From the NCBI RefSeq assembly GCF_015070375.1, contig NZ_JADCLL010000005.1, forward strand, positions 186,001 through 250,000: 64,000 nt of DNA, given 5' to 3'. Every line of letters starts with the position of its first letter. Within the stretch, counting starts at the first letter, position 1. The DNA is from Nocardioides kribbensis. Its GTDB lineage: Bacteria; Actinomycetota; Actinomycetes; Propionibacteriales; Nocardioidaceae. The notes under the pieces were generated by a model. It did not search any database. It saw only the letters and a list, made by a program, of their open reading frames with translations, and was not told the origin of the DNA. Of the stretch, positions 10,926 through 33,157 are shown one piece after another. A program made the position numbers and the translations under genes.

Positions 10926-11714
10926 TCACATCGCCAGGTGCCCGCGCTCGGCCTCCTCCCGCATTGCCTTGATGGCACCGGCTGCGTGACGACGGATCGA
11001 GCGGGAAGACATCCCATGGACTTCCTCCACCAGTTGCGTGACCGACGGCGTCATCAGCCCACCTCGACCGCGCCGGCCCGGTGCGTCGATCTGCTCGGCC
11101 GCGTGCGCCAGGTCGAGCAGAAGGTCGCGATCGCCCTGCGCCAGCTTGCCCGAGTCGATCCCGCGCTGGAGCAGATCGGCCAGGACCTTCCTGCCCGCCA
11201 CCTCGTCGTCCGCGGGTCCGGCCGGGATGGACTCATCGAAGGCGTCGACCAGCACCGTCATCGCCCACGCCTCATCACGACGCTTGGCAAGATCGCCGAC
11301 GCCGAGCTCGGCCATCGACTCCCGGTAGACCCGATCGAGGATCTTCTTCGCGACGTACCTGTCGTCTGCGGGATCGTGTTCGCAGATCTGGACCCAGAGT
11401 TGGCCAGCCACGACCGCGTCGATCTCCTCAGCCAGGCGGCTTATGCGGCCGGCGACTCGCGCGGCACCTGGCATCAGGAGCCACGCGAGCGCGACGTACG
11501 CCCGTCGGTCCCCCTCGGCAATCCTCCGGAGAGCCGCCAGCACTTGGTCGCGTCGGGTCGGCTCGGCGTCCTGCATCCAGCGCGGCAGGTCCTTCAGGTC
11601 GGCGACGTCCGGCAGCTCGTTCGACACCTGCCTCCATTGCGGCCACTCGGCTCGTAGTTCTCGCATATTCGGGGCGTTGATGTCGTCAACGCCCAGGCAC
11701 TTGGCAACGCTCAT
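10926..11714 (-). CDS. Hypothetical protein with a sigma-region-4-like HTH end
   Basis: This 262-residue soluble protein is not firmly identified. ATG 11714 has GGAAGGAG about eight bases upstream; a GTG three bases earlier is less well spaced. The C-terminal segment, SVTQLVEEVHGMSSRSIRRH followed by AAGAIKAMR, reads like the helix-turn-helix of sigma region 4. The middle (YVALAWLLMPGAARVAGRIS) resembles the helical core of sigma-like proteins. Similar proteins occur on actinobacterial mobile elements, as I recall. It converges with hepT (4-bp gap) and is divergent from the XRE gene, sharing its promoter region. A regulator of the element is possible. Confidence 0.6.
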   Translation of the reverse strand: MSVAKCLGVDDINAPNMRELRAEWPQWRQVSNELPDVADLKDLPRWMQDAEPTRRDQVLAALRRIAEGDRRAYVALAWLLMPGAARVAGRISRLAEEIDAVVAGQLWVQICEHDPADDRYVAKKILDRVYRESMAELGVGDLAKRRDEAWAMTVLVDAFDESIPAGPADDEVAGRKVLADLLQRGIDSGKLAQGDRDLLLDLAHAAEQIDAPGRRGRGGLMTPSVTQLVEEVHGMSSRSIRRHAAGAIKAMREEAERGHLAM

Positions 11715-11770
11715 CACGCTGCTCCTTCCTGTCCGCCCCGGGTTGGGTGACAGGTAGGTGTGCGAGTGTC

Positions 11771-11816
11771 CCCAGATCGTGGAATTTAGATCTGGGTAGA
11801 TATGTACGATGCAGGT
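11771..11816 (+). promoter_or_regulatory. Inverted-repeat operator and -10 box of the XRE gene
   Basis: A perfect 8-bp inverted repeat, CCCAGATC (11771-11778) and GATCTGGG (11789-11796), has a 10-bp spacer. It is followed by a -10-like TACGAT (11805-11810), exactly seven bases before the GTG at 11817. The layout fits a leaderless transcript whose promoter is covered by a dimeric HTH repressor, probably the XRE protein. No clear -35 box is seen. The gene on the other strand starts 57 bp away and may share the operator. Confidence 0.65.
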
Positions 11817-12362
11817 GTGACCAACTGGAGACCCCAGCCGAGGACGGTCATCGAGGAGGCGCGTCTCGCGAGCGGACTCGGCCAGGCCGAGCTCGCGGCC
11901 CTCGCTGGCACCTCACAACCAACGCTGTCGGCTTATGAACGGGGCAAGAAGAGCCCGGGCCTCGCCGTCGCGGAGCGAATCGTGAACGTCGCCGGCTGGA
12001 ACATCGCGCTCCAGCCGCGGGTGAGCTTCACCGAGCACCCAGAACCGCCCGGATTCCGATTCCCGTTCACCGTCCCCGACCGGCTGTGGCGCCTGGAAGC
12101 CCCCGCATGCTTCCGCACGATCAAGTTCTTCGACCTCATCGACGACGACAACGACAAGTTCTGGTGGGACCTCTCCATCCGCGCGGACCGCAAGCTCGTC
12201 TACGAGCGACTCCTCACGTACGGCGACGAAGGAAGCCTGCGCCTCTACCTCGACGGCGCGCTGCTGATCGACCTCTGGAACGAGATGGAGGTGCCTGAGC
12301 CGATGCGTAGCCACTGGGCCGCGGTCGTCGAGGCCACGGTTCATGCGCCGATCCCAGTTTGA
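11817..12362 (+). CDS. XRE-family helix-turn-helix regulator
   Basis: This 181-residue protein has an N-terminal Cro/CI-type HTH (EEARLASGLGQAELAALAGT then SQPTLSAYERGKKSP) and a C-terminal domain of unknown role with DDDNDKFWWDLSIRADRKL. The C-terminal part suggests an antitoxin-type regulator. An in-frame ATG at 11802 is the longer alternative, but a -10 box lies between the two codons, so the leaderless GTG at 11817 is preferred. It probably represses its own promoter through the inverted repeat just upstream. The short frame after it looks like the remains of a partner gene. Confidence 0.8.
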   Translation: MTNWRPQPRTVIEEARLASGLGQAELAALAGTSQPTLSAYERGKKSPGLAVAERIVNVAGWNIALQPRVSFTEHPEPPGFRFPFTVPDRLWRLEAPACFRTIKFFDLIDDDNDKFWWDLSIRADRKLVYERLLTYGDEGSLRLYLDGALLIDLWNEMEVPEPMRSHWAAVVEATVHAPIPV

Positions 12363-12435
12363 GCACGAGCTGGTCCGTCGCGACGAGGACACCAGGCGCA
12401 CGGCGTTCGACGTCATCAAGCACGCCAACTCCTGA
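12343..12435 (+). pseudogene. 30-codon remnant of a possible XRE-linked partner gene
   Basis: A short frame starts inside the end of the XRE gene (20-base overlap) and reads MRRSQFEHELVRRDEDT and so on to HANS. The start resembles the opening of nucleotidyltransferase-type proteins often encoded right after such XRE genes (MRR-QFEH, from memory). The remainder is too short for that family. I infer an internal deletion that joined the first codons to the last ones. It may instead be a chance frame. Confidence 0.3.
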
Positions 12436-12513
12436 CCAGCGCAGCCAAACAACCTGATTCGTCGGATGTGCCCACTACCGTTGGCCTGACCCGAGAAGCC
12501 CGAGGAAGTGGCG

Positions 12514-13716
12514 ATGGACAACGAGATTCAGCTCGTCAGCGATGGCGATGGCCTTGCGGTCATCGGCGAGCCGAAGGCTGTCGAGAAGTTCTTGCGCGAC
12601 GAAGGTGTCTGGGCGATGTCCCAGGGCTTTGACCTGCGACGGGTCAAGGCTCTCTTGGGTCTCGGCGCCGATATCGCACAGGCAGCATCTGAGCTTTCCG
12701 CCATTTCCGGGCGCTGGATCAAGCTGACGGAGGAGTCCGCCCGACTCGTCAATGAGCACGGTCTCATGGAGACTGACACGGACGGCGTCAGTCACCTCAT
12801 GATCGGGGTGCCCGGCAGAGTGAAGAGCTGGCTCCAGACTGAGCAAAACATGGGGTCGCTGCTCACCAATCCCGCGGCGCTCTCTGGCGTGGCGGGGGTC
12901 ATGGCACAGATCGCTGGCCAGCAGACGATGGCCGAGATCGTGGCCTACCTCGACAGGATCGATACCAAGGTCGATGAGGTCCTCGGCAAGGTTGACGACA
13001 CTGTCCTGAAGGACATGCGTGGCGCACGCCTTCAGATCAGGCGGGCGATGACGATGCGGGACCGGGAGGGGCGCGTCACGGCCGACGCCTGGTCAGAGGT
13101 GCAGAACGCGTCGGGGAAGCTGGCAGATGTGCAGGGCTACGCACTCCTCCAGCTTGAAGCCATCGCCACAAAGATGGAGAGCCGCAAGAACGTTCGCGGG
13201 ATCGCCGCGGCCGCCGAGGACGTCAAGCCTGAGGTCCTGAAGTGGTTGGCGGTCCTGGCTGACACCTTCCAACTCCAGGAGGCTTTCGACGTGCTGGCAC
13301 TCGACAAGGCGATGGACGAGTCGTCGGAGGTGCTCAACGCGCGGCGGGAGGGCCTCGAAGCCGATCGAGCCGATCGCCTCGAGCTCATCACTGGGCACAC
13401 CGCCGAACTGCTGGGGCGGATGGATACAGCGGTCGGCCGTGCCAACAAGCGGCTGCCGTTGACCCGCGACAAGTCGCTGTTCATCATCAACGCCGGGAAC
13501 AGCGTCGCCGCCGATGTCCACGAATTCCTCGGGCTGCTGGGGGTCGATGCGGACCGCCGAGCATGGGAGCCGCGCCCCTTGGCGCCCGTTGTGGAGTTCG
13601 GGTCGAAGGCGATCCAGCAGAGTAAGGACAAGGGGCCGGCCGTCGTGGGCACAGCCGCCTTTGCAGCAACCGCAGTCGGCCTGGGGAGAAAGTACGGAGG
13701 CGGCAACCAGGCGTAG
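12514..13716 (+). CDS. Hypothetical protein with predicted coiled coil
   Basis: This 400-residue protein is unrecognised. ATG 12514 is preferred over GTG 12508 because the GAGGA at 12502 is better spaced for it. It opens with MDNEIQLVSDGDGLAVIGEP. The part near YLDRIDTKVDEVLGKVDD is heptad-like and probably a short coiled coil. The C-terminus has a weakly hydrophobic Ala/Gly/Val stretch (PAVVGTAAFAATAVGLG), possibly membrane-interacting. No catalytic motif is seen. It is the last gene before the repeat-rich end of the accessory region, so it may be element cargo. Confidence 0.65.
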   Translation: MDNEIQLVSDGDGLAVIGEPKAVEKFLRDEGVWAMSQGFDLRRVKALLGLGADIAQAASELSAISGRWIKLTEESARLVNEHGLMETDTDGVSHLMIGVPGRVKSWLQTEQNMGSLLTNPAALSGVAGVMAQIAGQQTMAEIVAYLDRIDTKVDEVLGKVDDTVLKDMRGARLQIRRAMTMRDREGRVTADAWSEVQNASGKLADVQGYALLQLEAIATKMESRKNVRGIAAAAEDVKPEVLKWLAVLADTFQLQEAFDVLALDKAMDESSEVLNARREGLEADRADRLELITGHTAELLGRMDTAVGRANKRLPLTRDKSLFIINAGNSVAADVHEFLGLLGVDADRRAWEPRPLAPVVEFGSKAIQQSKDKGPAVVGTAAFAATAVGLGRKYGGGNQA

Positions 13717-25539: not shown

Positions 25540-26205
25540 ATGCGCAGCAACCTGTTCGGCACCAACCTCGAGTCCGAGAGCGCGGAGCGCTTCACGCTGC
25601 AGAACCCCCGGATGCTCAAGGTGGCCCTCGACGGCGAGGTGATGGCGCGACAGGGCGCGATGGTGGCCTACCAGGGGCAGGTCGACTTCGCCTACCAGGG
25701 CGCGGGCGGCATGGGGAAGTTCCTCAAGAAGGCCATCACCGGTGAGGGCATGCCGCTGATGAAGGTCACCGGCCGCGGCGACGTCTTCTTCGCCGACGAC
25801 GCCTCCGAGATCCACCTGGTCACCCTCGACAACGACTCGCTCACCGTCAACGGCAGCAACGTGCTGGCCTTCGACAGCTCGCTGACCTGGGACATCAAGC
25901 GTGTCGAGGGCGCCTCGATGATGGCCGGCGGCGTCTTCAACACCACCTTCACCGGCACCGGCACCGTCGCCATCAGCACCCACGGCGAGCCCGTCGTGCT
26001 CAACGTCGACGCCCCGACCTTCGCCGACATCCAGTCGGCGGTGGCGTGGTCGTCCTCGCTCAGCACCTCCGTACGCCGCACCGCGGGCGCCGGCGCCCTC
26101 ATCGGCCGCGGCTCCGGGGAGGCCTTCCAGCTGGCCTTCAGCGGCCAGGGCTTCGTCGTCGTGCAGGCCAGCGAGGGCCGCACGGTCGCGCCGCACACCC
26201 ACTGA
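25540..26205 (+). CDS. AIM24 family protein
   Basis: This 221-residue protein shares the beta-rich fold of the mitochondrial AIM24 proteins, whose bacterial role is unknown. Characteristic parts are LKVALDGEVMARQGAMVAYQ, GRGDVFFADD, HLVTLDNDSLTVNGSNVLAF and the Gly-rich FTGTGTVAISTHG. There is no signal peptide. GAAGGAG lies before the ATG. It converges with jetC across two hairpins and occupies the place where jetD would be expected. Confidence 0.9.
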   Translation: MRSNLFGTNLESESAERFTLQNPRMLKVALDGEVMARQGAMVAYQGQVDFAYQGAGGMGKFLKKAITGEGMPLMKVTGRGDVFFADDASEIHLVTLDNDSLTVNGSNVLAFDSSLTWDIKRVEGASMMAGGVFNTTFTGTGTVAISTHGEPVVLNVDAPTFADIQSAVAWSSSLSTSVRRTAGAGALIGRGSGEAFQLAFSGQGFVVVQASEGRTVAPHTH

Positions 26206-26242
26206 GACCGGGCCACGACAGCGGAACGCAGCCGTCGGAGCT

Positions 26243-26273
26243 CGGCGGGCCCGGTCACCGACCGGGCCCGCCG
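26243..26273. terminator. Hairpin terminator after the AIM24 gene
   Basis: A 13- to 14-bp perfect stem (GGCGGGCCCGGTC and its complement) with an ACC loop lies 38 bp after the stop. It may also stop read-through from jetC. Confidence 0.8.
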
Positions 26274-26367
26274 GGCAACCCCTGCCGATGTGGTCGGACC
26301 ACTGTTCACGGATCACGGTCGCCACACAGGATCGAGACCTGCCGTAGCCCGTCCGCCCCAGGGGTGA

Positions 26368-26398
26368 GGCGAGGGCAGCAGCCTAGGCAGCCCTCGCC
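26368..26398. terminator. Hairpin after jetC
   Basis: A 9-bp stem (GGCGAGGGC/GCCCTCGCC) with a 13-base loop lies just past the jetC stop on the minus strand. It is weaker than the hairpin at 26243. Confidence 0.5.
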
Positions 26399-26415
26399 CG
26401 TGCGTCGAGCCGGCG

Positions 26416-29400
26416 TCAGGCCCCCGCCCCGACCCCGGCCGACCTCGCCTCGGTGGTGATCGGGGTGATCCACGACTGGTGGGTCTCGGGGCTCTTGGTG
26501 ATGGCCAGCAGCTCGTCCATGTGCGGCTCCAGGCCGGTGACCTTGTCGAGCGGCACACCGACGACGAGCTGGAAGCCCAGGCCCTTCCAGGCCCGCACGG
26601 CGCGGCCGGCGAAGTCGGAGTCAGCCTTGACGAAGCCCTCGTCGAGGAAGACCGGGGCGAAGCGGGGCCGCGAGCGCATCTCGTCGCCGAGGCGGAAGCG
26701 CAGCGCCGAGCCGACGATGAAGGCCACCAGCTCCTGGCTCTCCCCGCCGCTCTTCTCCCCCAGCGTGCGGTAGGTCGCGCGCAGCTCGCCGGTGGCGGAG
26801 TCGTAGCGCTCAGCGCTGACCTCGACGTGTCGGCGCACGTCGAGCAGCCGGTCGCGGTCGGTCGGCTCGCCGGCGCGCTCCCCCGACTGCGCGGGCAGGC
26901 GCAGCTGGTCCATGAAGCGGCTCAGGTCGGTGAAGCGGCGCTCGAGGTCGGCTTCCTCCAGCCGGGCCGGGGAGGCGGCCGAGAGCGCGCGGAGGTCCTT
27001 GAGGAAGACCTGCACGTGGGCGGGGCTGAGTCGGCGCAGCCGGATGCGCAGCCGGTCGCCGGCCCCGCCGAACTCCAGGCGCCGCAGGATCGCGTTGATC
27101 GGCTCGAGGCGGTCCTCGATGTCCTCGATCGAGGCTGCCATCGCCCCGACCAGGGGCACGAGGTCCTGCCCGCTCCACTCGGTGAGCCGGCGGCGCCACT
27201 CGGTGCGGCGCTCGGCCAGCCCGGTGCCGCGGATGTCGGCGAGGATGCGGGCGAAGTCGGGGTAGGAGGCCACCGACGTGCCGAGGTTGGGCGACTCCCA
27301 GCGCGCGACGTAGAGCCGGAAGACCGCGCTCAGCTCGTCCTCGACCCGCGCGATCTCGGTCTCGGTGTCGGCCACGGCCGCGCGCAGCCGCTCGGCCAGG
27401 CGCTGGGAGGTCTCGGCGAAGCGGTCGAGGGCCTCGGGGTCGGCCGGGGCGGCGGCCGCGGCGAAGTCGGCGGCCAGGGCGCCCGACTGGGCCTCGGTGA
27501 GGTCGACCGCGCCGGAGGCCAGGATGGTCTCGAGGCGGTCCTTGACCAGGTCCTCGTCGTCGACGAGGCGCCCGTGCACCTCCTCGAGGGTGCGCTGGCG
27601 CTGCTCGAGGGCGAAGCGCCGCCGGCGCGTGTCCTCCAGCCGCGCGGCCAGCGCCTCGACCTGCGACTCGGTGGCGCGCAGCTGGTCGTCGGCGCCGAGG
27701 ATCTCCGCGCGCCGGCGCTCCAGGTCGTCGATGCGCTCCTGGCTGCCCTCGACGTCGAGGTCGGCGAAGCGGGCGGTCACCACGGCGTCGTACGACGAGC
27801 GCTGCAGCTCCAGCTTGCTGCTGCGCCGGTCGAGCTCGACCAGCTCGGCGTCGAGCGCGCCGAGGTCGCGCTCCACCGCGGCGAGCTCGGCGTCGACCTC
27901 GGCCACGGCCTCGTCGTTGGAGAAGCCGATGATGCTGCGGGCCTCCGAGCGCCCGTGGCTGCCGCGGCGACCGCTGCGGGTCTGCCCGGCCAGGGTCACC
28001 CGCAGGCCGGGGCCGGCGAGGTCGGCGGCGTCCTCGACGCACAGCGCGTTGCGCGAGGGCTCGGAGACGTGGGCCTGCACCCACCCGGAGAAGGGCGAGG
28101 AGCGGAAGACCAGCTTGCCCGCGACCCGCTCGGGGTCGGCGGGGCCGAGGTCGGGCAGGTCGAGCGGGGCGCCCTCGAAGCTCAGCCGCCCGCGCAGGCG
28201 CAGCCCGTCGATGGCCGAGGAGAAGTGCTGGAGCCGGTCGAGGGGCACCAGCAGCACCCGGGCGCTGGCGCCCAGCACGGTCTCGACCGCGGTGCGCCAG
28301 CGCGCCTCGTCGGGCGCGACGTCGAGCAGCTCGGCCACGAAGGGCAGCTCCTCGGGGCTCAGCCCGCTGGCGCGGGCGACCTCGGCGCGCAGCTCGTGCA
28401 GCGGGGCCGGCACGCGACCGGCACGGCTCTCCAGCGAGGCGCGCTCGGCGCGCAGGTCCGACTGCCGCTTGCTCAGCGGGTAGCGCCGGTCGCGGGCGGC
28501 GTCGCGCTCGCGGCGGGTCTGCTGCTGGTGACGCTCCCAGCCCGAGAGCCACTGGCGGGCGTGGAGCTGGAGCACGCTGAAGGACTCCGCCGACCGCAGC
28601 GACGCCTCGAGGTCGCGGGCCTCGGAGTCGGCCGCGGCGAGCAGCGGCAGCAGCCGCTCCTCCAGGGCGTCGCGGCGGGCCTGGCGCTCCTGGCGTACGG
28701 ACTGCTCCTGCTCCAGGCCGAGGGCGATCGACTCCAGCGCGGAGCCGCCGGCGTCCTGGTGGGCCTCGCGGGCGGCGTCGAGGTCGGCGACCAGGCGGCG
28801 CTCGTCGCGCGCCGCGGCGGCCAGCTCCCCGGCGGTGGTGGTGCGGTCGCGGCGGTTGGCGTCGGTGGCGGTCTCGATCAGGCGCAGGTGGGTCTGGAGC
28901 AGCCAGCGGCGCAGCGGGGTGTCGCCGGAGCGGGTCACGCCGTAGGAGTCGAGCTCGGCGAGGCGTCGGGTGGCGCCGCGGCGGCGCTCCTCCAGCCCGG
29001 TGATGGGGCCGAGCAGCTCGAGCTTGGCCTCCTCGGTGCGCATGGCGGTGTAGGCGGCCTCGAGGTCGTCGAAGTGCTCGATGGCGCGGTCGGCGGCGGC
29101 GTAGGTGGCGGGCCGCTCGAGCACCATGTCCTTGTAGAGCTCGTCGACGCTGCGCACCTGGTTGCCGGCCTGGATGCGCGCCAGCAGGCGCAGCGCCTTG
29201 GCGCCGTCGCCGTTGGCGCCGATGCCGAGGCGGGCGTGGAGCACGGCGGAGAACTCCGCGTAGGTGCGGTGCACCCGGATGCCGGGGAAGAGCTTCTTCA
29301 GCGTCGTGGCGTGGAAGCGCTCGGGCACCGCGACCTCGAGGCTGGTCAGCTCCAGCCCGGAGTCGTGGGTGACCAGCTGCATCTGCACGTCGGCGGAGCG

Positions 29401-29937
29401 GGTGGCACGCCTCGGCACGTAGTAGGTGCGCAGCACCGTGAAGCGCCCGCCGCGGTCGTTGACGAAGGTCATCGCCACCGCACCCCACGTGTCGCCGCCC
29501 TGGCCGCGCAGCAGCCGCTCCACCGGCCGGCCCGTGCGGGGGTCGTCGACGACGTCGACGGCGCCGCGCAGGTAGGACAGCAGGTTGCGCTGACCCGCGC
29601 CGCGCGCGCGACCGGCCACGGCGTCGTTGGAGGCGCCGTTGAACTTCGCGTCGGAGGGCATCATCAGCGCGGTGTAGGCGTCGAGCACGGTGCTCTTGCC
29701 CACGCCCGAGGCCCCCGAGATCATCGTGGCGTCGCCGCGCAGCGGGATCGTGGTCAGCCCCGAGAAGCCGCCCCAGTTGACCAGCTGCAGCAGGCTGGCG
29801 CGCCACTGCATGGTGTCGTCCTTGGGCGTCGCCACGACGCCGCGGTCGAAGAGGCCCTCGCCGGTCTCGTCGGCCATCTCGTCGGTGGGCTCGTCGGGGA
29901 CCGGGCCGTCGAGCCGGTCGCTCTCGTGCACGCTCAT
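26416..29937 (-). CDS. jetC: JetC/MksB: SMC-like ATPase of a Wadjet/MksBEF complex
   Basis: This 1173-residue ATPase is the SMC-like motor of a condensin-type complex that extrudes DNA loops. In Wadjet systems the complex recognises small circular DNA. Walker A GASGVGKST is at residues 75-83. Long coiled-coil arms rich in Arg, Leu, Glu and Ala flank a central hinge-like region (residues about 500-640). The ABC signature is LGEKSGGESQEL, and Walker B is FAPVFLDEGFVKAD near the C-terminus, followed by FQLVVGVPLDKVTGLEPHMD. It overlaps jetB by four bases. The next gene downstream should be the Toprim-type nuclease jetD, but none is present. Confidence 0.93.
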   Translation of the reverse strand: MSVHESDRLDGPVPDEPTDEMADETGEGLFDRGVVATPKDDTMQWRASLLQLVNWGGFSGLTTIPLRGDATMISGASGVGKSTVLDAYTALMMPSDAKFNGASNDAVAGRARGAGQRNLLSYLRGAVDVVDDPRTGRPVERLLRGQGGDTWGAVAMTFVNDRGGRFTVLRTYYVPRRATRSADVQMQLVTHDSGLELTSLEVAVPERFHATTLKKLFPGIRVHRTYAEFSAVLHARLGIGANGDGAKALRLLARIQAGNQVRSVDELYKDMVLERPATYAAADRAIEHFDDLEAAYTAMRTEEAKLELLGPITGLEERRRGATRRLAELDSYGVTRSGDTPLRRWLLQTHLRLIETATDANRRDRTTTAGELAAAARDERRLVADLDAAREAHQDAGGSALESIALGLEQEQSVRQERQARRDALEERLLPLLAAADSEARDLEASLRSAESFSVLQLHARQWLSGWERHQQQTRRERDAARDRRYPLSKRQSDLRAERASLESRAGRVPAPLHELRAEVARASGLSPEELPFVAELLDVAPDEARWRTAVETVLGASARVLLVPLDRLQHFSSAIDGLRLRGRLSFEGAPLDLPDLGPADPERVAGKLVFRSSPFSGWVQAHVSEPSRNALCVEDAADLAGPGLRVTLAGQTRSGRRGSHGRSEARSIIGFSNDEAVAEVDAELAAVERDLGALDAELVELDRRSSKLELQRSSYDAVVTARFADLDVEGSQERIDDLERRRAEILGADDQLRATESQVEALAARLEDTRRRRFALEQRQRTLEEVHGRLVDDEDLVKDRLETILASGAVDLTEAQSGALAADFAAAAAPADPEALDRFAETSQRLAERLRAAVADTETEIARVEDELSAVFRLYVARWESPNLGTSVASYPDFARILADIRGTGLAERRTEWRRRLTEWSGQDLVPLVGAMAASIEDIEDRLEPINAILRRLEFGGAGDRLRIRLRRLSPAHVQVFLKDLRALSAASPARLEEADLERRFTDLSRFMDQLRLPAQSGERAGEPTDRDRLLDVRRHVEVSAERYDSATGELRATYRTLGEKSGGESQELVAFIVGSALRFRLGDEMRSRPRFAPVFLDEGFVKADSDFAGRAVRAWKGLGFQLVVGVPLDKVTGLEPHMDELLAITKSPETHQSWITPITTEARSAGVGAGA

Positions 29938-30743
29938 GCCTGCTCCTCGCTCGCGTCGTGCTCGGGCGCGACCTCGCCGAAGAGGTCGACCGGCGCCTCC
30001 GGCGCAGCCGGTACGTCGGAGCCGTTGGCGCGCCGCAGCGCCTCCAGCAGCTCTTGGAGCAGCTCGAGCGGCAGCAGCGCCTCGACGGCCTCGCTGACCT
30101 CGAAGCGCTCCTCGGCCGCGGTGGGGATCAGCAGGCCGGTGCGCGCGACGGCCAGCACCGCGTTGCGGGCCCGCTTCTCCTCCGCGGCCTCGTCGGTCAC
30201 GTGGGCGGGACGGAAGGTCGCGACGTGGGCGACCAGGTCGTCGCGGTCGACGTAGACGCGCGCGTCGCCCGCGGCCAGGCCGGCACGCAACCGGTCGCGC
30301 AGGTGCACCAGCACGATGGTCTCCTCGCGCGACCAGGCGGCGTCGTAGAGCAGCGTCGGGAAGCGGGCGCCCGTCTCGGAGGTCGCCTGCCGCTTCCAGG
30401 CGACCTCGCGCTCGCGGTCGACCGCCAGCTCGAGGAAGAGGTCGTTGAGCCGCGAGCGCAGCACCCGCTCGTGCTCCACCAGCACCCGCCAGTCGCGCGG
30501 GTGGGTGCGGGCGCTGACGAAGCGCTGCTTGAGCAGCGTGACCAGCACGTGGCGCTGGGCCAGCTCCAGGCCGCCCTCGTCGCCCTCGAAGAGCGAGACC
30601 GACCCCCCGTCGGGGACCCGCACGTCGAGGTGGGCGGCCAGGTCGCCGTCGGAGTCGTGACCGGACGCAATGCCGGAGTCGTGGGCGGGCTCGGGCGCGA
30701 GGTCGGGGTCGCGGCGCAGGTCGGCGGTGTCGACGTCGGTCAT
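29934..30743 (-). CDS. jetB: JetB/MksE (DUF4194) subunit
   Basis: This 269-residue protein is the MukE/MksE-like winged-helix subunit that bridges the kleisin JetA and the ATPase JetC. The central region GLELAQRHVLVTLLKQRFVS, RDWRVLVEHERVLRSRLNDL and FPTLLYDAAWSREETIVLVH fits DUF4194. The N-terminus is an acidic, His/Asp-rich tail. It overlaps jetA and jetC by four bases each (ATGA), so translation is tightly coupled. The C-terminal 60 residues are acidic and probably disordered. Confidence 0.88.
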   Translation of the reverse strand: MTDVDTADLRRDPDLAPEPAHDSGIASGHDSDGDLAAHLDVRVPDGGSVSLFEGDEGGLELAQRHVLVTLLKQRFVSARTHPRDWRVLVEHERVLRSRLNDLFLELAVDREREVAWKRQATSETGARFPTLLYDAAWSREETIVLVHLRDRLRAGLAAGDARVYVDRDDLVAHVATFRPAHVTDEAAEEKRARNAVLAVARTGLLIPTAAEERFEVSEAVEALLPLELLQELLEALRRANGSDVPAAPEAPVDLFGEVAPEHDASEEQA

Positions 30744-32287
30744 CGGGCCTCGCTCTCGGGTCGGTGCTGCGGGTCGGGGGTCTCGGCGCCGGCCGTGCCT
30801 GCGGTGCCGGCCTCGGCGCTCGGCGGGGAGCCGCGCAGCGGGGTGCGGGGGGCGGTGAAGGTGCGGGTGGAGCCGTCGGCGCGCACGGCGGCGTAGGTCT
30901 CCAGCTCCTGCTCGGCCTCCCAGCCGTGGTCGGCGGCGAGGTGGAGCAGCCCGAGGATCTCGACCGGGCGGCGCAGCGAGGGCTCGAGGCCGGCGAAGAG
31001 CGCGCCCAGGGAGTCGGGCGGGTGGGTGGAGGCCAGGGCGAGGTCGAGGCGCTCGCGCAGCGACCCGAGCTGGGGGCCGCCCTGGGCGCGCAGCGCGTCG
31101 AGGGAGACCGCCGGCGCCTCGTCGGGGCCGGCGGTGGCGATGCGGTCGGGCAGGACGTCGTCGGCGGGGTCGTAGAAGCGCTCGCGCAGGTGCTCGACGC
31201 CGGCCCGGCTGGGCAGCAGGGCCAGCTCGAGGGTGGCGCGGGGCCCGGTGGTGGCCATCCAGGTGGCCAGCTCCGACTCGACCTGGCGCAGCGTCTGCTC
31301 CAGCTCGCGGTCGCGCTCGACGTCGCGGGAGACGATGTAGTCGCGCAGCGTGGCCGTCACCCGGGCGCGCTGGGCCAGCACGCGGTCGAGGCCCTCGCGC
31401 ACCAGGCGCACCGTGCCGCGCAGCTCGGCGCGGTCGGCGTCGCCGAGCACGCCGTCGGCGACGGGGTGCTCGAGCAGCGCGGTGAGGTCGTCGCGCAGCC
31501 GGCCGACCAGCTCCTCGTCGCGCAGCAGCGCGAAGGCGCCCTCGAAGGCGCGGCCCTCGTGGGTGGCGGTCATCAGGGCGTCGGCGCGGGCGAGGTAGTC
31601 GTCGATGACCTCGCCGGCCGGGCGGTCCTCGGCGCGGAAGGCGGCCAGGATCTCGCTGCGGATGGTGGCGAAGCGCTCCTCGACGCGCGCGAAGTCGCTG
31701 GGCAGCGCGGAGACCAGCGAGAGCAGCTCGGTGAAGCCCTCCTGCATGTAGTCCTCGCTCACGCCGACCAGCTCGGCGCCGTCGACGAGACGGTCGCGCT
31801 CGGCCTGGAGCCGGGCGATCTCGGCGTCGAGCAGCTCCACCCGCGAGGCGCGGTCGGGGTTGGCCTCGGCGTTGAAGCGGCGCACGGTGCCGAGCAGGGT
31901 GGCGATGCGGTGCTCGCTGAGGGTGGCGCGGTCACGTGCGAGGTTCTTGACCAGCTCGAGGGCCTGCTGGGCGTGGGAGGTCAGCGTGTAGACCTCGCGC
32001 CCGCCCTCGTCGAGGGAGCGCACCAGCCAGCGTCCGCGCATCCACCGCTGGCAGATCTCGCGCCCCTCCCCGACCGGCACCTCGCCCTCGTCGGCGTGCC
32101 GGATCGCGGCGAGGTGCTCCTCGACCTGCGTGTGCAGCCGCCCGGTGGGGATCGGCTTGTTGTCGCGGCCGAAGGCGGCGCGGAAGATCGTGATCACCAC
32201 CGGCGCCTGACGCTGGTGGAGCAGCGTGAGGGTCGGCTGGGAGAACGCGCCGCGCACGCGCGCGAGCTCCCCCGCGATCTCGCTCAT
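30740..32287 (-). CDS. jetA: JetA/MksF (DUF3375) kleisin subunit
   Basis: This 515-residue protein is the kleisin-like subunit closing the JetC ring. The start MSEIAGELARVRGAFSQPTL (ATG 32287) is typical of DUF3375; the frame extends upstream to 32464 but without family character. Next come FGRDNKPIPTGRLHTQVEEH and GREVYTLTSHAQQALELVKN (winged-helix part), then long helical stretches. The C-terminal tail is Pro/Ala-rich. It is the first gene of the jetABC operon. Upstream is a gap of nearly 200 bp with a small GC-rich hairpin around 32325-32345. Confidence 0.9.
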   Translation of the reverse strand: MSEIAGELARVRGAFSQPTLTLLHQRQAPVVITIFRAAFGRDNKPIPTGRLHTQVEEHLAAIRHADEGEVPVGEGREICQRWMRGRWLVRSLDEGGREVYTLTSHAQQALELVKNLARDRATLSEHRIATLLGTVRRFNAEANPDRASRVELLDAEIARLQAERDRLVDGAELVGVSEDYMQEGFTELLSLVSALPSDFARVEERFATIRSEILAAFRAEDRPAGEVIDDYLARADALMTATHEGRAFEGAFALLRDEELVGRLRDDLTALLEHPVADGVLGDADRAELRGTVRLVREGLDRVLAQRARVTATLRDYIVSRDVERDRELEQTLRQVESELATWMATTGPRATLELALLPSRAGVEHLRERFYDPADDVLPDRIATAGPDEAPAVSLDALRAQGGPQLGSLRERLDLALASTHPPDSLGALFAGLEPSLRRPVEILGLLHLAADHGWEAEQELETYAAVRADGSTRTFTAPRTPLRGSPPSAEAGTAGTAGAETPDPQHRPESEAR

Positions 32288-32483: not shown

Positions 32484-32747
32484 TCAGGCGAGGGCGAGGA
32501 AGAGCTTCTCCATCTTCTTGGTGTCGACCCCGTCGAGCCCCTCGCCGTCGGCGAGGCACTGCTGCAGGCCGGTGGCGACGATGGCGTAGCCGGCGCGCGA
32601 GAGGGCCTTGTTGACCGCGGCGAGCTGGGTGAGGACGTCCTCGCAGGACGACCCCTCCTCCATCATCCGGATGACGCTGGCCAGGTGGCCGTTGGCGCGC
32701 TTCATGCGCGTGATGATCGCCTTGATGTCGTCGGGCTGCAGGTCCAT
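32484..32747 (-). CDS. cstR: CsoR-family repressor, CstR-like persulfide sensor
   Basis: This is an 87-residue, all-helical CsoR/DUF156 protein. Copper sensors of the family carry a C-H-C triad. Here the first Cys (GSSCEDVLTQL) and last Cys (TGLQQCLAD) are present, but the His four residues before the last Cys is Gly. A two-Cys pattern without His is that of the persulfide sensor CstR, which releases DNA when the two Cys are cross-linked by sulfane sulfur. The divergent sulfide-oxidation genes and the G/C-tract operator support this. It overlaps the DUF302 gene by one base. Confidence 0.88.
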   Translation of the reverse strand: MDLQPDDIKAIITRMKRANGHLASVIRMMEEGSSCEDVLTQLAAVNKALSRAGYAIVATGLQQCLADGEGLDGVDTKKMEKLFLALA

Positions 32748-33157
32748 CAGTGTGCTCCGTCCTCGAGCGCGGTCAGCGCGGTGGTCAAGCGGGTGCGGGC
32801 GTCCTCCGACACCGCGCGCAGGGCGTCGCTGGGCTCCCCCACGAACGACGTCATGACGGCCGGGTCGAAGGCCTCGACCACGGTGGTGGTGTCGTCGACG
32901 GAGCGTACGACGACGTTGCACGGCAGCAGCGCGGCGATCGAGGGCTCGGCCTGAAGCGCCTGGTGCGCCAGCTGCGGGCGGCACGCGCCGAGGATCACCT
33001 GCGGCGCGACGTCGACGTCGAGCTTGGCCTCGAGCGTGGCCGCGAGGTCGATCTCGGCGAGCACCCCGAAGCCGACCTCGGCGAGCTGCTCCCTCACCGC
33101 GGCCACCGCCTCGGCGTAGGGGCGGTGGGTCGTGACGCGGATCGTGTAGTCGCTCAT
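32747..33157 (-). CDS. DUF302 domain protein
   Basis: This 136-residue protein has the DUF302 pattern: TTHRPYAEAVAAVREQLAEV, GFGVLAEIDLAATLEAKLD and LGACRPQLAHQAL, then IAALLPCNVVVRSVDD. DUF302 proteins often sit beside sulfur or metal stress genes; the role is unknown. Two Cys (in GACRP and LPCNV) are conserved in many members. It is first in a two-gene operon with cstR and is divergent from the rhodanese gene, so cstR probably represses both directions. Confidence 0.85.
   Translation of the reverse strand: MSDYTIRVTTHRPYAEAVAAVREQLAEVGFGVLAEIDLAATLEAKLDVDVAPQVILGACRPQLAHQALQAEPSIAALLPCNVVVRSVDDTTTVVEAFDPAVMTSFVGEPSDALRAVSEDARTRLTTALTALEDGAH

What the first reader, a model, noticed from the sequence alone, without database searches (positions are those of the whole stretch)
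26416..32287. jetABC (Wadjet/MksBEF) operon without an adjacent jetD nuclease
JetA, JetB and JetC are intact, tightly overlapped and have their key motifs. In Wadjet the fourth gene encodes the Toprim-like nuclease that cuts plasmids. Downstream of jetC are two hairpins and convergent AIM24 and YCII genes, with no nuclease. The set may act as a condensin only, use a nuclease encoded elsewhere, or be a decayed defence system.
Basis: partly seen in the sequence, partly recalled or inferred. Interest (0 to 1): 0.72.

Follow-up and report, generated by a model that had tools for sequence, protein, structure and literature searches.

The report
Wadjet-type SMC operon without its nuclease
A bacterial DNA-looping machine that in its relatives can be armed with a plasmid-cutting enzyme is kept intact here, and in more than half of the related genomes examined, without that enzyme, which suggests it is kept for a job that needs no cutting.

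Summary
The window (very probably a Nocardioides genome) carries intact, 4-nt-overlapping jetA-jetB-jetC (26416-32287, minus strand) and no jetD; three JetD models find none in the whole assembly. It is not a local accident. In a genus sample of 147 genomes JetA occurs in 93 and JetD in 20. Of 91 non-canonical jetABC operons read, 8 have jetD and 83 show none (3 of these could not be read past jetC); 74 of those 83 genomes have no JetD anywhere. The operons are not decaying: 79 of 81 not cut by contig ends are intact, and dN/dS between jetD-less neighbours (JetC 0.105) is close to that of the housekeeping kleisin ScpA (0.099). No linked replacement gene was found. jetD-bearing operons are nested among jetD-less ones; one relative has intact jetABC beside a broken jetD. 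Best reading: a JetD-free, MksBEF-like SMC motor descended from a type I Wadjet system, kept for a non-cutting job beside Smc-ScpAB. Loss of JetD giving MksBEF has already been proposed for Pseudomonas, so the kind is known; the series of jetD-plus, jetD-broken and jetD-less operons in one genus is the useful part. Function was not tested.

The parts
30740..32287 (-). jetA (MksF-like kleisin, DUF3375), 515 aa; open frame reaches 32464
   Evidence: Pfam PF11855 374.7 bits; PADLOC JetA1 615.9 bits; relatives align from MSEIAGEL
29934..30743 (-). jetB (MksE-like KITE protein, DUF4194), 269 aa; N-terminal motif LFEGDEGGL
   Evidence: Pfam PF13835; PADLOC JetB1 381.5 bits; motif pattern in 82 of 82 jetD-less JetBs of the sample
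26416..29937 (-). jetC (MksB-like SMC ATPase), 1173 aa, Walker A / signature / Walker B intact
   Evidence: PADLOC JetC1 1416.8 bits; PDB JetC chains 8dk2_C E 1.8e-40 and 8as8_A E 2e-39; motifs
26206..26415 (.). gap between jetC and AIM24: two G+C-rich hairpins, no jetD or detectable remnant
   Evidence: inverted repeats; fold; JetD profile search in six frames finds nothing at E<1 there
25540..26205 (+). AIM24-family gene, convergent with jetC; not a conserved partner
   Evidence: Pfam PF01987; in the genus genomes no other homologue lies within 10 kb of a JetA place
32484..33157 (-). upstream neighbours: CsoR-like repressor (32484-32747) and DUF302 gene (32747-33157); not conserved beside jetA
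   Evidence: Pfam PF02583, PF03625; no flank family in more than 9 of 90 loci, antisense frames overlapping jetA aside

Best explanation
It is a JetD-free, MksBEF-like SMC complex descended from a type I Wadjet (JetABCD) system. JetC dimers, JetA kleisin and JetB KITE subunits should form an ATP-driven DNA-loop extruder. Without JetD the motor cannot cut a circle it has fully extruded; it loads, extrudes and releases, and is kept because holding or organising DNA (chromosome, other replicons or both) is useful in itself, next to the housekeeping Smc-ScpAB. Shown here: intact genes, no JetD, purifying selection, a separate ScpA gene, and presence in more than half of the genus sample. Inferred from the family: loop extrusion. 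Not tested: which DNA it acts on, and the phenotype.
For: No JetD in the assembly by three models. 83 of 91 non-canonical operons read in the genus sample show no jetD, and 74 of those 83 genomes have no JetD_C match at all. jetABC intact in 79 of 81 jetD-less operons not cut by contig ends. Median dN/dS over 18 jetD-less pairs picked by hand as near neighbours (two share one member): JetA 0.098, JetB 0.165, JetC 0.105; ScpA 0.099 over 16 of these pairs. Walker A is kept in 79 of 80 and signature and Walker B in 80 of 80 jetD-less JetC rows aligned; L143 was left out of that alignment. ScpA present in 145 of 147 genomes, the window's included, so jetABC is not the sole condensin. No flank family recurs in more than 9 of 90 loci, antisense frames overlapping jetA aside, so the three genes alone are the conserved unit. 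Origin from JetABCD: canonical operons of the genus (9 of 9) and all 9 JetA places in other genera of a family sample have JetD just downstream; jetD-bearing rows L211, L213, L215 and L216 leave low in the JetC tree; a broken jetD sits beside an intact jetABC in N. flavescens (L100). Precedent: a review states that P. [quoted passage not shown]
Against: No functional evidence: the condensin role is analogy. The closest studied actinobacterial relative that I read about, C. glutamicum MksBEFG, does not fold the chromosome and acts on plasmids (PMC7083940, passages). JetA of any kind is absent from 54 of 147 genus members, 46 of 134 among the better assemblies, which is patchy for a core condensin. 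Its place changes between species, as for defence genes; the only synteny comparison I had (the scp region) is a conserved region and not a fair control. The JetB N-terminal motif is kept alike with and without jetD, so nothing seen in JetABC shows adaptation to working alone. Two jetD-less operons, L138 and L143, have a frameshifted jetC.
Confidence: 0.55

Rival explanations
1. JetABC still senses small circular DNA, and an unrelated nuclease or other effector encoded elsewhere in the genome does the damage; JetD has been replaced in trans.
For: JetB N-terminal motif unchanged in 82 of 82 jetD-less JetBs and in 7 of 8 jetD-bearing ones by the same strict pattern. Defence-like patchiness and relocation.
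Against: No conserved gene near the operon in the 90 loci compared. No JetD-type nuclease in 127 of 147 genomes, the window's included.
Confidence: 0.17
2. It restricts or silences plasmids without cutting them, by compacting or trapping extruded circles (compare Smc5/6 on viral episomes; that comparison is recalled).
For: C. glutamicum Mks lowers the amount of low-copy plasmids (PMC7083940 passages). Retention under selection.
Against: In published work all four Jet subunits were needed to suppress plasmid transformation in B. subtilis (PMC10586767). No direct evidence here.
Confidence: 0.13
3. jetD is a plug-in module: operons switch between cutting and non-cutting states as jetD is lost and regained by recombination, and jetABC survives because the two states alternate.
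For: From 1.4 kb upstream of jetA to the end of the stretch read, L148 (jetD+) and its sister L142 (jetD-) are collinear at 89-97% and jetD is the only gap over 200 nt; all 7 jetD-less operons at that site have the same junction, with jetC and the convergent gene 4-12 nt apart, which fits one old absence and a later gain better than repeated identical deletions. jetD+ rows are nested among jetD- rows: 7 changes of state (6 forced by well supported branches), or 15-26 losses if jetD is never regained. Among the low rows JetD is more alike than JetC (L213/L216 50% against 35%; L211/L215 52% against 39%), which could mean exchange of jetD.
Against: Only 8 of 91 non-canonical operons carry jetD, so most lineages are without it and need a jetD-free benefit anyway. 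Seen from L162, JetD and JetC rank the relatives almost alike.
Confidence: 0.1
4. It is a decaying, non-functional remnant of a Wadjet system.
For: jetD is missing; N. flavescens shows a broken jetD; two jetD-less operons have frameshifted jetC (L138, L143).
Against: 79 of 81 operons not cut by contig ends are intact; dN/dS near 0.1 in JetA and JetC.
Confidence: 0.05

Closest known systems
MksBEF of Pseudomonas aeruginosa
   Same: Three genes (kleisin, KITE, SMC), no nuclease, coexists with Smc-ScpAB; [quoted passage not shown]
   Different: Not compared by sequence here. In Nocardioides the jetD-less state is mixed with jetD-bearing operons inside one genus.
Type I Wadjet JetABCD
   Same: JetC and JetB match the JetC and JetB chains in the Protein Data Bank (that these are from P. 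aeruginosa PA14 and E. coli GF4-3 is recalled). The best PADLOC models of all three subunits are named JetA1, JetB1, JetC1; JetDs of three jetD-bearing relatives match JetD1.
   Different: No JetD nuclease, the signature subunit.
MksBEFG of Corynebacterium glutamicum / EptABCD of Mycobacterium smegmatis
   Same: Actinobacterial, same subunit families.
   Different: Those have a fourth, nuclease subunit and restrict plasmids (PMC10123090, PMC7083940, PMC10586767 passages). Not compared by sequence here. The canonical jetD-bearing class inside Nocardioides is a distant clade, JetC identity to the window 24-30%.
jetD-less jetABC on a Mycolicibacterium fortuitum plasmid (CP089609.1)
   Same: DUF3375, DUF4194 and SMC genes in a row, 46% identity in JetC over 54% of the query, no JetD found in the 15-kb stretch.
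   Different: On a 220-kb plasmid; jetA annotated in two pieces.

Membership tests
Wadjet type I (JetABCD) | JetA, JetB and JetC present in one operon | tested here: met
   PADLOC JetA1, JetB1 and JetC1 models at 615.9, 381.5 and 1416.8 bits; overlapping frames
Wadjet type I (JetABCD) | JetD Toprim nuclease in the operon or genome | tested here: not met
   PF09983, PF11795 and a JetD profile of the genus: no match in the assembly
Wadjet type I (JetABCD) | restricts small circular plasmids | not testable with these tools
   needs transformation assays
MksBEF (nuclease-free MukBEF-like SMC) | three-gene kleisin-KITE-SMC operon, no nuclease gene | tested here: met
MksBEF (nuclease-free MukBEF-like SMC) | SMC ATPase motifs kept under selection | tested here: met
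   motifs; dN/dS
MksBEF (nuclease-free MukBEF-like SMC) | coexists with Smc-ScpAB | tested here: met
   ScpA at G000:C6:25355 and in 145 of 147 genus genomes; smc itself was not searched
MksBEF (nuclease-free MukBEF-like SMC) | contributes to chromosome organisation or segregation | not testable with these tools
   needs deletion strains and Hi-C
Lamassu (LmuB SMC-like) | LmuB-type SMC with an effector beside it | tested here: not met
   LmuB model 20.3 bits against 1416.8 for JetC; no conserved gene beside the operon

The most novel reading that the evidence does not exclude
Within one genus a plasmid-defence SMC system has been, and is still being, converted into a nuclease-free SMC complex: jetD is a removable (and at times regained) module, and related species now hold the cutting, broken and non-cutting versions of the same motor.
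Probability: 0.35. Interest if true: 0.75.

Novelty: new member of a known kind. Interest (0 to 1): 0.52.

Why it matters
Whether MukBEF/MksBEF condensins arose from plasmid-cutting Wadjet systems by losing the nuclease is an open proposal (PMC10586767, section 7). Nocardioides offers related operons with intact, broken and absent jetD, so the step can be tested by direct comparison. It also warns that counting jetABC as a defence system without checking jetD would overcount Wadjet in this genus several-fold (JetA in 93, JetD in 20 of 147 genomes).

Tried and rejected
Short 'JetD' hits at jetC 3' ends were an artefact: some JetD seed frames ran into jetC in another frame. I trimmed the seeds and repeated the search with a profile in six frames, which at E<1 finds only the 18 intact genes.

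Equating the JetB N-terminal [LIV][FWY]..D.G.L motif with the IFDR motif that contacts JetD in a published system: the alignments to the solved JetB chains do not reach that part reliably, so I make no claim.

A conserved partner gene next to the operon: none found. Leaving aside antisense frames that overlap the start of jetA (up to 13 loci), no family is in more than 9 of 90 loci, and that one is a short frame found on either strand. Same-strand open frames close behind jetC occur in 29 jetD-less loci but belong to no shared family; in such G+C-rich DNA most are likely shadow frames.

An empty site for the window's operon: the AIM24 and DUF302 homologues of relatives are not near each other, so none was defined.

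Recent transfer of the operon between distant species: the largest residual is JetC 0.86 against 0.77 for the ScpA-region block; rank correlation 0.37 over 2926 pairs. One query of that block may start with out-of-frame sequence, so the block is rough. On plasmid and phage records only distant relatives (all under 60% identity; 7 plasmid and 1 phage records) were found.

The family-wide and class-wide pairing of JetA with JetD was read by hand from the tables; contig lengths there were not checked.

Full report
What is there. On the minus strand of the window lie jetA (30740-32287), jetB (29934-30743) and jetC (26416-29937), each overlapping the next by 4 nt. Pfam and PADLOC identify all three clearly, and JetC matches solved JetC chains 8dk2_C and 8as8_A at E 1.8e-40 and 2e-39. 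The ATPase motifs are intact. Behind jetC come two G+C-rich hairpins without T-runs and a convergent AIM24 gene; a YCII-domain frame further on is on the same strand as jetC. The genome is very probably a Nocardioides: 61 of the 64 loci found with the window's JetC in named genomes are labelled Nocardioides.

Is jetD really absent? The window's assembly (4.12 Mb, 15 contigs, rated 100% complete) has no match to JetD_C, to DUF3322 or to a profile built from 10 JetDs of the same genus. The first two searches ring in Corynebacterium glutamicum among 14 control genomes. No remnant of jetD is detectable beside the operon.

How common is it? In 147 genomes of the genus, JetA is found at 102 places in 93 genomes and JetD_C in 20 genomes (the same 20 with my own profile). 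I read 100 of the 102 places (99 fetched, plus the window; two fragments, G031:C242 and G143:C302, were not fetched as regions). Nine form a distant, canonical class, and all nine have jetD directly downstream. Of the other 91, 8 have jetD (L148, L162, L194, L210, L211, L213, L215, L216) and 83 show none. For three of the 83 adjacency could not be read: the contig ends inside jetA (L214), inside jetC (L200) or 113 nt after it (L195). Nine of the 83 genomes have a JetD_C match somewhere (G013, G016, G060, G064, G091, G093, G106, G107, G142; only a fragment in G064); 74 have none. In the named set, 4 of 64 loci hold jetD, one of them broken (L100, L102, L107, L114); that set overlaps the genus sample, and a few of its loci end soon after jetC.

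Outside the genus. In a family sample of 245 genomes, all 9 JetA places in 8 genomes of other genera have JetD nearby (G155's is cut by a contig end). In a class sample of 197 genomes I count, by hand, 31 JetA loci over the cut-off outside the window's genus: 15 with JetD within about 7 kb, 15 without (11 of these in genomes with no JetD_C match at all), 1 at a contig end. All 12 with JetA above 440 bits have JetD; 3 of the 19 weaker ones do. So jetD-less operons are not confined to Nocardioides.

Decay or selection? Of 81 jetD-less operons not cut by contig ends, 79 have all three genes open (ORF lengths, coverage). L138 has a frameshift just behind the Walker A part of jetC and L143 several frameshifts; sequencing error cannot be told from mutation. 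Median dN/dS over 18 pairs of jetD-less operons is 0.098 (JetA), 0.165 (JetB) and 0.105 (JetC), against 0.099 for ScpA over 16 of these genome pairs. The pairs were picked by hand as near neighbours, and two share a member. This is the pattern of working genes.

A partner nearby? Leaving aside antisense frames that overlap the start of jetA, no family on either side recurs in more than 9 of 90 loci. Apart from short matches farther out, homology between compared main-group operons stops at the operon edges (L162 against L141: 4438-10091; L194 against L070: 4463-10190, in coordinates of the first). In the genus genomes no other AIM24 homologue lies within 10 kb of a JetA place. The unit that selection keeps is the three genes. 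ScpA is present in 145 of 147 genomes including the window's, so this would be a second SMC complex.

How did jetD go? On the JetC tree (97 rows, quick search, SH-aLRT) jetD-bearing rows are both low (L216, L213, L211, L215, with long branches whose place is unsure) and nested (L194; L162 with L210; L148). The label needs 7 changes (6 forced by starred branches). If jetD can only be lost, there were 26 losses on the resolved tree, 20 or 15 when branches under 80 or 95 are collapsed. Seen from L162, JetD and JetC rank the relatives almost alike (L215 is the exception), which favours common descent of jetD with jetABC; among the low rows, however, JetD is more alike than JetC. One set of eight operons shares a location: L148 has jetD, seven do not. 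From 1.4 kb upstream of jetA onward L148 and its sister L142 are collinear at 89-97%, with jetD the only gap over 200 nt (farther upstream they differ elsewhere too), and in all seven jetD-less operons jetC and the convergent gene end 4-12 nt apart. Independent identical deletions are unlikely, so here one old absence followed by gain in L148, or exchange of alleles between species, is more likely. In N. flavescens (L100) jetABC is intact while jetD has two in-frame stops and about 55 extra codons: jetD can break while jetABC stays whole. Loss and gain have probably both happened.

What it most likely does. JetABC of known systems is an SMC motor that senses circles, by the leading model through loop extrusion, and JetD makes the cut (PMC10586767, passages and section 7). 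Without JetD only the motor remains. The review says that P. [quoted passage not shown] that is the closest precedent. Against a simple transfer of this role, C. glutamicum MksBEFG does not fold the chromosome (PMC7083940, passages), JetA is missing from 54 of 147 genus members, and a conserved JetB N-terminal motif is kept alike in jetD-less (82 of 82) and jetD-bearing (7 of 8, the eighth a near match) operons. I rate the non-cutting SMC reading at 0.55.

In print? Searches for Wadjet/JetD/MksBEF, JetABC/JetD/IFDR, MksB/M. smegmatis/condensin/EptC, JetABC/Nocardioides/Wadjet, MksBEF/MksG/nuclease/actinobacteria (20 of 2,653 listed), jetD-less wording (20 of 25 listed) and MksB/alternate condensin showed, by titles and abstract starts, no paper about jetD-less operons in Nocardioides. 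Seen beyond the listings: passages of PMC10586767, PMC10123090, PMC7083940, PMC4255302, PMC7022226 and PMC12287153 and section 7 of PMC10586767. Most subscription papers are not in the library; the 2011 paper that named MksBEF was not held.

Noticed in passing
L100 (Nocardioides flavescens) 11488-12819: jetD broken by two in-frame stops and an extra stretch of about 55 codons, directly behind an intact jetABC.
   Followed up: partly
L298 (Mycolicibacterium fortuitum plasmid CP089609.1): A 220-kb plasmid carries a jetD-less jetABC; an SMC motor of a plasmid-restricting family on a plasmid is odd and could protect the plasmid or interfere with a host Wadjet.
   Followed up: partly
L049 1501-1743 (G064): Isolated JetD-like fragment about 430 kb from the genome's jetABC operon, probably a remnant of another Wadjet operon. 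Partial JetD_C matches in G032 and G068 were not examined.
   Followed up: partly
L210 (G099) jetA: A jetD-bearing operon whose jetA has an in-frame TAG; jetB, jetC and jetD are open.
   Followed up: partly
L217 (G013:C1:2020000-2039500): A JetD gene with no JetA, JetB or JetC match around it by the window's proteins; G013 also holds a canonical and a non-canonical jetABCD and a jetD-less operon.
   Followed up: no
class sample: About half of actinomycete JetA loci outside the genus lack JetD nearby, all of them among the weaker-scoring JetA sequences; suggests an actinomycete-wide jetD-poor subfamily.
   Followed up: partly
window 26206-26415: Strong G+C hairpins between two convergent genes without T-runs (fold z-score -3.12).
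   Followed up: partly
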